Shown here: positions 16,208 to 63,755 of the stretch, in pieces
How positions within the stretch are numbered: position 1 is the first letter of the stretch
Layout: each line of letters starts with the position of its first letter
Source: Sipunculus nudus
Lineage: Eukaryota; Annelida; Sipuncula; Golfingiida; Sipunculidae
Length of the DNA stretch: 64,000 nucleotides
Assembly (NCBI GenBank): GCA_026874595.1
Contig: CM049307.1
Span: 91,699,830 to 91,763,829, forward strand
Direction: 5' to 3'
The notes under the pieces: model-generated
What the model saw: the letters and a program-made list of their open reading frames with translations, nothing else
Told to the model about the DNA's origin: nothing
Database searches by the model: none
Position numbers and translations under genes: made by a program

Positions 16208-16335
16208 CTACTCATTCTTCTGGATTAACTCTTGTGCGACTTCCTCCAAAAATTCCTGTGTTTCTTCACTAGTATAGAAAGGGGCTCCATCTTGTTGATT
16301 AACATACTTATTGCTTGGATTAGTCTCCCACTGTC
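16208..16335 (-). CDS. Gene A exon 15: C-terminal tail and stop
   Basis: After the acceptor CTCCAG the exon continues in phase from exon 14 as Q-W-E-T-N-P-S-N-K-Y-V-N-Q, then F-Y-T-S-E-E, a Glu-rich stretch, and TAG at 16210-16208. Y-V-N-Q is a classic Grb2-type SH2 docking context. The 6.4 kb distance from exon 14 is large, but the phase fits exactly, the reading frame is open over 42 codons in AT-rich DNA, and an AATAAA follows 89 bases downstream. Confidence 0.6.
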
Positions 16336-62500: not shown

Positions 62501-63755
62501 TAACGTGCCACTGGTTGTCATGCTGACATCACTAGAGGAGAACAACAAAGTACGAATGATATAACAGCAGCTAAGATAAGAACTTTTAACTTTATGGATG
62601 CAAAGTGTTTGCGAACTTTCAGCTTTATATTTCCGATAATGGAGCTAAATTCAGTTAAAGATGATATATTTTTATGCTTAAACTTGTTATTGGTAGATAT
62701 ACATTTTTGGCATACTGTCTCGCGTTGTATCGCTGCTTGAGAAAACGTCGTTCTATAAAACTTATTTTATGTGAATCAAACACCTGTAGGTCAAATGTGA
62801 GCAGTACTGGCCTGAAGGGAAGGACCCAATGTCTTTTGGGCATGTCACCATGTCTCTCAGGAGGAGTAAACACGTACAGAAGAACCCCCACTATATAACA
62901 AGAGAGTTGATTCTTCAAAAGGTAACTCAAATGTCCCTGAGAGCCATCGCAATCCTCAAATAATCAATAAAGATACCTGAGATTTACTGCATAATCAAGC
63001 TGTAATCAAGCAAGCAACAGACTACAGAACAGAGAACCTTTATTCTAACCAAATGCTATTTACAAATGTCTCATTTTACCAGGATGGAAAAACTAGGCGT
63101 GTTGAACATATCCAGTTCACATCCTGGCCAGACCATGGATCCCCTCTCAGTCCTGCAGCCTTTCTGAGTTTTCATCAGGAGGTTAAGAAGTATTACGAAA
63201 GCACCAAGGGGCCTGTGTTGGTACATTGCAGGTGACTATAAGTCTTCTTTAACTTTCATTTAATGCCGTCGGGGAGTGATCATGATTGATTTAATATAGA
63301 AACTGTCCTTGTTCCAGTGCTGGAGTTGGTCGAACAGGAACTTTCCTGGCGATGGACTACCTGCTTCGACAGGCTGAGAAAGAGGCTACCATAATTATAT
63401 ACAACTGTGTCGCGGAGATGAGAAAACATCGTGTGAATATGGTCCAGATTCTGGTGATCCATTCTTATTTCTGAAGTTAACTTTCTTCATAGCCAGCTTA
63501 TTGGACTCTTATCGTTAAGACTGGTGCAAAAGAGTCCATGTAACATACGAGCTGAATTAGTATATCGTTTGATAATAATAGGTATACATGTGCCCGGTCT
63601 AATTATTTCTAAATGTTTTATCGAAGGACCAGTACAAATTTTTACATGAGGCTCTTTTGGAGGCGTTGCATTGTGGGAAAGTCGTATATGACGCGGCGGA
63701 GTTTGAAGCCTGGCGTATTTACGACCATGGTGAGGTCTTGCAAAAACAGTTCGCG
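52718..63755 (+). CDS. Gene B: kringle/EGF receptor-type protein tyrosine phosphatase (3' end beyond window)
   Basis: Twenty-three coding exons join in frame for 2793 nt (931 codons): 52718-52746, 53443-53504, 53856-53981, 54497-54757, 55011-55148, 56151-56288, 56909-57043, 57226-57360, 57647-57781, 58384-58518, 59609-59737, 60072-60212, 60469-60559, 60858-60898, 61048-61298, 61398-61485, 61691-61767, 61933-61969, 62452-62549, 62790-62921, 63083-63231, 63318-63453, 63627-63755. Order: signal peptide, EGF (31-72), kringle (73-159), eight EGF-like domains, TM (about 534-551), basic juxtamembrane region, one classical PTP domain (about 640-931) with Asp810 in WPDHG, Cys842 and Arg848. It should remove phosphate from phosphotyrosine on the inner face of the plasma membrane. 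The last exon ends in a GTAAGC donor, so more exons, perhaps a second PTP domain, lie outside. It is the divergent paralogue of gene A. Confidence 0.87.
53856..53981 (+). CDS. Gene B exon 3: MEGF-type EGF domain
   Basis: This 126-base phase 1-1 exon is almost the same as gene A exon 3, with the same cysteine layout. Its donor reads CTAA|GTGATA, weaker than the CTAG|GTGAAT in gene A, and the split codon therefore changes from Ala to Asn at the start of the kringle. Confidence 0.8.
54497..54757 (+). CDS. Gene B exon 4: kringle domain
   Basis: A 261-base phase 1-1 exon, four codons shorter than in gene A. It keeps Y-Q-G-K, N-Y-C-R-N-P, S-P-W-C-Y, W-W-C-T-I and H-C-G. The usually conserved Trp after the second Cys is changed to Cys (D-C-I-L-C-Y), so the domain has seven cysteines. 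The substitution may disturb the fold or provide a free thiol. Confidence 0.88.
55011..58518 (+). CDS. Gene B exons 5-10: EGF-like array
   Basis: Six phase 1-1 exons: 55011-55148, 56151-56288, 56909-57043, 57226-57360, 57647-57781 and 58384-58518, 138 or 135 bases each. Each encodes one EGF-like module. Exons 5 and 6 align to gene A exons 5 and 6. Exon 9 (57.7 kb) has lost a conserved cysteine, reading G-Q-Y-D-K where gene A reads G-Q-C-D-K. A broken relic exon lies between exons 9 and 10. Confidence 0.83.
55647..55948. mobile_element. MITE with CAGTGAAA ends in gene B intron 5
   Basis: The 302-base element starts CAGTGAAACCTGTCTAAAG and ends in the imperfect inverse, ...CAGTTTTCACTG. It is flanked on both sides by TA, the duplication typical of Tc1/mariner-like and some other cut-and-paste elements. 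No ORF is present. Confidence 0.75.
56467..56559. repeat. (TATC)n(TA)n microsatellite in gene B intron 6
   Basis: About nine TATC units are followed by a long TA tract. Confidence 0.9.
57957..58081 (+). pseudogene. Relic EGF exon between gene B exons 9 and 10
   Basis: After TATTAAG the sequence still reads R-C-Q-Q-G-Q, then N-C-A-M-N-C-G-T. A frame change is needed to continue as [15 protein letters not shown]. The segment is 125 bases instead of 135, the main frame stops at TAG, and no good donor follows. It is a decayed copy of the EGF exon and is left out of the gene model. Confidence 0.65.
58452..58986 (+). repeat. Tandem duplication of half an EGF exon plus microsatellite
   Basis: About 260 bases starting in the second half of gene B exon 10 (from near 58452) are repeated from about 58719 to 58986. 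The copied block holds the exon's 3' half, its GTTTGT donor, a (CT)n(TA)n(GA)n tract and a following block of about 90 bases. The second copy has no acceptor or first half, so it should not be spliced as an exon. The copies are almost identical outside the microsatellite, which implies a recent event. Confidence 0.8.
58541..58913. repeat. Two (CT)n(TA)n(GA)n compound microsatellites
   Basis: The tracts at about 58541-58635 and 58807-58913 are copies of each other within the local tandem duplication. The CT and GA runs can pair as a long hairpin around the TA centre. Confidence 0.9.
59609..60212 (+). CDS. Gene B exons 11-12: membrane-proximal EGF-like domains
   Basis: Exons 59609-59737 (129 bases) and 60072-60212 (141 bases) are phase 1-1 and encode two further cysteine-rich modules ([11 protein letters not shown] ... 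and [11 protein letters not shown] ...). They are more divergent than the distal repeats and have no clear counterpart in gene A, except that Y-G-M-N-C-T recalls the frameshifted gene A exon 10. Confidence 0.75.
60469..61298 (+). CDS. Gene B exons 13-15: transmembrane and juxtamembrane region
   Basis: Exon 13 (60469-60559) encodes a short stalk and a long hydrophobic span ending L-V-W-L-R-R. Exon 14 (60858-60898) is a small Ser-rich exon placed like gene A exon 12. Exon 15 (61048-61298) is hydrophilic, rich in Arg, Lys and Glu, contains D-N-V-Y-N-N-L and ends F-E-D-E-Y-K, the usual lead-in to a PTP domain. Phases 2, 1 and 0 join correctly. Confidence 0.8.
61398..63755 (+). CDS. Gene B exons 16-23: classical PTP catalytic domain
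   Basis: The eight exons read through the standard PTP motifs in order: [10 protein letters not shown] (phosphotyrosine loop), Y-I-N-A-S-F-I, F-I-A-A-Q-G-P, V-N-D-F, V-V-M-L-T, K-C-E-Q-Y-W-P, T-S-W-P-D-H-G (general acid Asp), [11 protein letters not shown] (nucleophile Cys and Arg), V-N-M-V-Q and Q-Y-K-F-L-H-E-A-L. All catalytic residues are present, so an active phosphatase is expected. The loop Tyr is Phe here and the usual W of D-F-W is V. Confidence 0.92.

What the first reader, a model, noticed from the sequence alone, without database searches (positions are those of the whole stretch)
16208..63755. Head-to-head paired receptors: related ectodomains, opposite tyrosine-signalling tails
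Genes A and B share signal peptide, EGF, kringle, EGF array and TM exons with matching phases and lie divergently on the arms of an inverted duplication. After the membrane they part: A has a short tail with tyrosines in Y-S-E-I, Y-E-N-G and Y-V-N-Q contexts, B has a full PTP domain. This looks like the paired activating/inhibitory receptor logic of vertebrate immunity, here with a phosphatase as one partner. If both bind the same ligand, B could directly dephosphorylate A. The functional part is inference; gene structures are read from the sequence.
Basis: partly seen in the sequence, partly recalled or inferred. Interest (0 to 1): 0.88.

Follow-up and report, generated by a model that had tools for sequence, protein, structure and literature searches.

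The report
Mirror-image receptors with swapped signalling tails
Two animal cell-surface receptor genes lie back to back with nearly the same outer half but different inner halves, one a tyrosine phosphatase and one a short tyrosine-rich tail; the second belongs to a small class of such genes, and this copy of it is partly damaged.

Summary
Genes A (-) and B (+) share signal, EGF, kringle and EGF exons with the same phases on the arms of an inverted duplication. B is an open receptor tyrosine phosphatase: D1 is complete with intact motifs, and an inactive-looking D2 lies beyond the window. A's tail needs correcting. YSEI and YENG are right. The 'YVNQ exon' is a transposase relic. Five tail exons were missed: RNHSR, YEMT, YESL, PPDQ and YEPL. 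The corrected tail is phase-consistent and recurs in other genes of this genome. A's membrane exon marks a class of five loci, two of them 99.9% identical; one was read for 20 kb and shows no PTP. Kringle and PTP comparisons suggest A is a chimera: outer half sister to B's, inner half of the tyrosine-tail class. The nearest precedent is SIGLEC11/SIGLEC16. Against a working pair: A's last EGF exon has a 2-base frameshift (skippable in phase), its membrane-exon acceptor is weak, there is no transcript or ligand evidence, and the tail's sign is unknown. 'Paired receptors' is a good reading of the gene family and an open one for this copy.

The parts
29261..29322 (-). gene A signal-peptide exon (first ATG exon not found)
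28818..28943 (-). gene A EGF1
28013..28285 (-). gene A kringle (PF00051, 41.6 bits, cut-off 34.3)
27606..27743 (-). gene A EGF2
26723..26860 (-). gene A EGF3
26361..26495 (-). gene A EGF4
25829..25963 (-). gene A EGF5
25459..25593 (-). gene A EGF6
24933..25074 (-). gene A last EGF exon, 2-base frameshift relative to 3 relatives; phase 1-1, so skipping keeps the frame
24616..24715 (-). gene A membrane-span exon; weak acceptor
23942..23976 (-). gene A tail exon RNHSRNTEASR; same phases as B's first juxtamembrane exon
23563..23633 (-). gene A tail exon with DVYSEI
22723..22750 (-). gene A tail exon with LYENG
53443..53504 (+). gene B signal-peptide exon (first ATG exon not found)
53856..53981 (+). 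gene B EGF1
54497..54757 (+). gene B kringle (32.0 bits, just under the 34.3 cut-off)
55011..60212 (+). gene B EGF2-EGF9, eight exons
60469..60559 (+). gene B membrane-span exon
60858..61298 (+). gene B juxtamembrane exons
61398..63755 (+). gene B phosphatase domain D1, eight exons; WPD and [10 protein letters not shown] present, KNRF for the usual KNRY
42569..43248 (-). end segment of A arm, aligns to 47266-47945 of B arm
46536..46996 (+). relic of the D2 end of another receptor phosphatase, with stops, upstream of B

Best explanation
The locus holds two members of a large EGF-kringle receptor family of this genome that uses two kinds of cytoplasmic end. B is a receptor tyrosine phosphatase: an open reading frame with an active-looking D1 and an inactive-looking D2. 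A is most simply a chimera arising with the inverted duplication: its outer half copies B's, and its membrane span and tail belong to a separate class with five conserved tyrosines and no phosphatase seen. Inferred mechanism: kinases phosphorylate the tail tyrosines (VYSEI, QYEMT, GYESL, LYENG, TYEPL), which then dock SH2 proteins; B, or B-like siblings drawn to the same ligand, removes those phosphates. The two ends would thus set opposite signs on one kind of ligand. Shown by sequence: layout, exon phases, tail conservation, discordant kinship of A's two halves, intact D1 motifs. Inferred: shared ligand, sign of the A signal, dephosphorylation of A by B. This copy of A can make a membrane receptor only if its frameshifted EGF exon is skipped.
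For: Inverted duplication. Open chains with AG/GT at the junctions: A 16 exons, 525 codons with the frameshifted exon left out; B 27 exons, 1154 codons, the first ATG exon missing in both and the last D2 exon not found in B. 9 of 20000 randomly shifted chains of A's eight membrane-span-and-tail exons stay open (splice signals were not required of the shifted chains). Tail exons in the same order in loci at C2 51.92 and 51.95 Mb and in the 99.9% copy of the latter at 52.06 Mb, downstream of kringle exons on the same strand. Membrane exon at 5 places at E <= 4e-5 and one weak hit at E 0.42. Five of five tail tyrosines invariant in three tails. Kringle tree: A and B sisters, 97/85, next to the 51.75 Mb kringle, 98/81; B's two catalytic PTP exons are most alike in percent to those at 51.76 Mb (76 and 79%), so B looks concordant and A does not. 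No PTP exon found between 51.8763 and 52.0322 Mb, where three loci of A's class lie (150 of 168 candidates scored).
Against: No transcript, ligand or biochemical data. A's last EGF exon is frameshifted and its membrane-exon acceptor scores -4.7 against 0.9 in the 51.92 Mb gene, the only other one scored. Tail dN/dS in comparisons with A (0.48 and 0.66) is higher than between the two relatives (0.32) (few sites), which fits relaxed constraint. The 51.92 Mb relative also has lesions: a stop in the same EGF exon and another broken EGF exon, and 5 bases missing in YENG. At 51.99 Mb only the EGF and membrane exons of the class were seen; the YSEI and YEPL searches reported nothing there. Two of the five loci are 99.9% identical over 3108 bases. 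By E-value B's first catalytic exon ranks the 52.11 Mb gene (72%) and an intron-free copy on C9 (61%) above the 51.76 Mb gene. Strict ITAM or ITIM patterns are not met.
Confidence: 0.5

Rival explanations
1. Gene A is a decaying pseudogene. The family uses both kinds of end, but this copy has lost the ability to make a membrane receptor, and only B works here. (The rivals listed are not mutually exclusive with a family-level pair.)
For: 2-base deletion in the last EGF exon and a degraded membrane-exon acceptor; higher tail dN/dS in comparisons with A; signal exon dN/dS 1.40 between A and B (20 codons).
Against: The 16 other exons keep their splice sites and one open frame; A's kringle is better conserved than B's (41.6 against 32.0 bits; shorter branch, 0.10 against 0.21); overall A-B dN/dS 0.36.
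Confidence: 0.3
2. Gene A makes a secreted decoy: reading into the frameshifted EGF exon ends the protein before the membrane span, leaving a soluble copy of the ectodomain it shares with B, which would compete for B's ligand.
For: With that exon included the frame stops at ...GMNCTYTQVS, before the span; the upstream exons are open.
Against: The stop lies well before later exon junctions, so such a message would be expected to be degraded (established knowledge); the tail tyrosines are still conserved.
Confidence: 0.15
3. The mirror-image resemblance is only the residue of a duplication in a fast-growing gene cluster; A and B bind different ligands and have no joint function.
For: Many related kringle exons, mostly on one strand, in C2 51.58-52.33 Mb, among 138 kringle matches genome-wide that are not all of this family; phosphatase 3'-end relic between the genes; EGF order differs between A and B.
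Against: In the kringle tree, ectodomains of the tail class and of the phosphatase class are close kin in two separate places.
Confidence: 0.25

Closest known systems
SIGLEC11 / SIGLEC16 paired receptors of primates (PMC5701461; passages read)
   Same: Head-to-head genes about 9 kb apart, alike in the part that encodes the N-terminal outer domains, opposite signalling, ectodomain kept alike by gene conversion; one partner has a non-functional allele with a 4-base deletion that loses the membrane span.
   Different: Ig-type lectins; the activating partner uses an ITAM adaptor; the inhibitory tail recruits phosphatases rather than being one (recalled). Here the signal exons lie about 24 kb apart.
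Draper-I / Draper-II and Corkscrew of Drosophila (PMC8092387; passages read)
   Same: A receptor with a tyrosine tail and an inhibitory form, with the phosphatase Corkscrew as eraser; EGF-rich ectodomain (recalled).
   Different: One gene with alternative splicing and a cytosolic phosphatase; here separate genes and a membrane phosphatase. No kringle (recalled).
LAR/PTPsigma-like, PTPalpha-like and CD45-like receptor tyrosine phosphatases
   Same: Tandem D1-D2; best PDB matches include PTPRS (E 2e-113), PTPRA, LAR and CD45.
   Different: Ectodomain here is EGF-kringle-EGF; D1 has KNRF for KNRY; D2 has HCRNGLVESG.
CEACAM1/CEACAM3 paired receptors (PMC5112662; search listing with start of abstract only)
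   Same: Similar outer regions with cytoplasmic parts of opposing function in an expanding family.
   Different: Ig domains (recalled), ITIM/ITSM and ITAM-like motifs; no phosphatase as partner in what I saw.

Membership tests
Paired immune receptors | Closely related ectodomains, different cytoplasmic parts | tested here: met
Paired immune receptors | Opposite sign of signalling | not testable with these tools
   B's phosphatase motifs intact; sign of A's tail unknown
Paired immune receptors | Shared or overlapping ligand | not testable with these tools
   no binding data
Paired immune receptors | Both members intact | tested here: inconclusive
   A has a frameshift in a skippable exon and a weak acceptor
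ITAM or ITIM receptor | Strict motif and spacing (consensus recalled) | tested here: not met
   positions -2 of YSEI, YESL, YEPL are D, Q, G; the three lie at tail positions 20, 53 and 100, so no YxxL/I pair is 6-12 apart
Receptor tyrosine phosphatase (B) | Full PTP domain with WPD and HC(X5)R, span and ectodomain in one open frame | tested here: met
Receptor tyrosine phosphatase (B) | Catalytic activity | not testable with these tools
   sequence only
Receptor tyrosine phosphatase (A) | PTP domain downstream of the span | tested here: not met
   tblastn with five PTP proteins of this genome: no match from 10 kb left of the window up to A's span (E 0.01); B's D1 finds none in 20 kb of the 51.92 Mb relative (E 0.5)
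MEGF10/Draper/CED-1 receptors | Orthology by tree | not tested
   only EGF_laminin-type repeats seen by Pfam

The most novel reading that the evidence does not exclude
An invertebrate paired-receptor system in which the opposing partner is a transmembrane tyrosine phosphatase with the same outer domain, built by repeatedly joining EGF-kringle ectodomains to a five-tyrosine tail or to a D1-D2 phosphatase, so that ligand binding would bring the eraser directly to the tail it erases.
Probability: 0.3. Interest if true: 0.82.

Novelty: new variant of a known kind. Interest (0 to 1): 0.6.

Why it matters
Vertebrate paired receptors set opposite tails on one kind of ectodomain, and the inhibitory tail has to recruit a phosphatase (recalled). 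Here the phosphatase itself carries the shared ectodomain, and the same two ends recur in a gene cluster of another animal genome. If the ligand is shared, this would be independent evidence that opposing pairs evolve readily, and it would suggest a dedicated eraser for an EGF-type receptor; a 2021 review says the cognate phosphatases of Megf10 and CED-1 remain unreported (PMC8092387, passages). Four searches of the open-licence PMC library for such a family listed 0, 1, 2 and 2 papers, none fitting by title and none opened.

Tried and rejected
YVNQ as a tail exon: rejected as a transposase relic. YENG exon out of phase after YESL: resolved by the extra PPDQ exon. A conserved start exon upstream of the signal exon: A has a candidate at 37323-37313 but B lacks its donor, so left open. 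Known structures for the tail: the two hits at E <= 10 (E 1.3 and 7.5) are not convincing. Shared two-way promoter: judged unlikely because of the phosphatase relic between the heads. Pfam on the whole of A and on B up to the juxtamembrane part showed no kringle, although the A kringle scanned alone is above cut-off and the B kringle just below it.

Full report
Setting. The window is C2:91699830-91763829 of a 1.43-Gb genome in 153 contigs. I fetched 50 kb to its right and 10 kb to its left.

Inverted duplication. Thirteen blastn segments join the minus-strand arm (25.8-43.2 kb) to the plus-strand arm (47.3-58.5 kb), 73.5-86.1% identical. One of the thirteen is a second match of one A EGF exon, so that exon counts twice in what follows. 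Exon bases that align are 85.6% identical (945 of 1104), other aligned bases 81.3% (2787 of 3426). Over seven shared exon pairs dS is 0.34 and dN 0.12; the signal exon alone has dN above dS. Overall this suggests selection on the protein in at least one copy. The EGF order is not fully collinear.

Gene B. Twenty-seven exons with AG/GT at the junctions give one 1154-codon open frame: signal peptide, EGF, kringle, eight EGF exons, span, juxtamembrane, D1 and D2. D1 covers Pfam PF00102 from end to end (on a first hand-joined version) and keeps WPD and [10 protein letters not shown]; the usual KNRY is KNRF. D2 lies outside the window and reads HCRNGLVESG, so it is probably inactive. The first ATG exon and the last D2 exon were not found. 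The best PDB matches include PTPRS, PTPRA, LAR and CD45.

Gene A. Sixteen exons, with AG at each acceptor and GT at each of the fifteen donors, give a 525-codon open frame ending at 22179, if the last EGF exon (24933-25074) is left out. That exon has a 2-base deletion against three relatives; one of the three (51.92 Mb) has a stop in the same exon, the other two are open. The exon is phase 1-1, so leaving it out keeps the frame; including it stops the frame before the span. The acceptor of the membrane exon is weak (-4.7 against 0.9 in the 51.92 Mb gene).

Corrected tail. Comparison with the 51.92 Mb gene and the 51.95 Mb locus showed seven tail exons after the membrane exon, all in phase in A: RNHSR, YSEI, YEMT, YESL, PPDQ, YENG, YEPL. 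When A's eight membrane-span-and-tail exons were shifted at random by up to 300 bases, 9 of 20000 chains stayed open. Five of five tyrosines are invariant in three tails, as are 48 of 99 residues of the first row; the two relatives are 77-81% identical to each other in DNA, so this is not three independent witnesses.

A class of genes. The membrane exon of this class has five matches at E <= 4e-5 genome-wide and one at E 0.42: window A, 51.92, 51.95, 51.99 and 52.06 Mb of C2. The loci at 51.95 and 52.06 Mb are 99.9% identical over 3108 bases, so four independent loci is the safe count, and tail exons were seen in three of these (not at 51.99 Mb). The last tail exon, searched alone, was found at three places other than A (A's own was not reported, so that search misses diverged copies). 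The 20 kb read at 51.92 Mb show no phosphatase. Phosphatase exons were not found between 51.8763 and 52.0322 Mb in a search that scored 150 of 168 candidates.

Chimera. In a tree of 30 kringle exons, the best of 138 matches (150 of 267 candidates scored), A and B are sisters (97/85), next to the 51.75 Mb kringle (98/81). About 10 kb on from that kringle lie the PTP exons most alike to B's in percent (76 and 79%); by E-value the 52.11 Mb gene (72 and 75%) ranks higher for the first exon. The tail-class kringles at 51.91 and 51.97 Mb group instead with phosphatase-class kringles at 51.86 and 52.01 Mb (99/95). Class labels rest on neighbouring matches on the same strand; 17 of 30 rows carried no label in the run, and 6 of 26 inner branches reach the tool's mark for strong support. 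Tail class and ectodomain kinship thus look discordant, and A's inner half seems to have a different history from its outer half. A relic of the D2 end of another phosphatase gene lies between the heads (46536-46996), as expected of a duplicated piece of a tandem array.

How it would work. The tail offers five SH2-docking candidates; YEN is a Grb2-type motif and YxxL/I fits several SH2 domains (recalled). Co-engagement with B would bring a phosphatase to it. None of this was tested. The strict ITAM and ITIM patterns are not met.

Results against. The frameshift, the weak acceptor, the higher dN/dS in tail comparisons that include A (0.48 and 0.66 against 0.32, few sites), lesions in a relative, missing tail exons at 51.99 Mb, and no expression data. 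I put a functional A in this copy at about 0.35-0.4, and the family-level opposing-tail reading at about 0.5; the rivals overlap and do not sum to one.

Precedents. SIGLEC11/SIGLEC16 are head to head, alike in the ectodomain part, opposite in sign, and one has a deletion allele without a span (PMC5701461, passages). Draper-II with Corkscrew is the closest invertebrate case I saw (PMC8092387, passages). Searches for a molluscan or bivalve family of this kind listed 0, 1, 2 and 2 papers, none fitting by title and none opened.

Noticed in passing
C9:10215810-10217324 (L001, L007): A receptor-phosphatase gene in a 1154-codon frame without introns, with both PTP domains matched and EGF repeats: probably a retrocopy; its D1 is 61% identical to B's.
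   Followed up: partly
C5:69714018, C10:10504514, C10:10513589, C3:50480427 (L002-L006, L008): More long intron-free frames with PTP domains (902-1347 codons), perhaps further retrocopies.
   Followed up: no
window 58453-58986: A 266-base tandem duplication that doubles the end of a B EGF exon together with a TC/TA microsatellite.
   Followed up: no
window 4860-6190 and 11670-13050: Two pairs of about 680-base tandem repeats some 6.8 kb apart, 60-94% alike, perhaps an uncharacterised mobile element.
   Followed up: no
C2:51860209 and 52014800; 51946253 and 52061025: A phosphatase-class and a tail-class locus both have near copies in a second place (96.7% and 99.9% identical over the roughly 3 kb held): segmental duplication or assembly duplicate.
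   Followed up: partly
window 57592-57819 and 54448-54762: Against A, B lacks one cysteine in an EGF exon and has a cysteine in place of a kringle tryptophan, so its ectodomain is drifting too.
   Followed up: no
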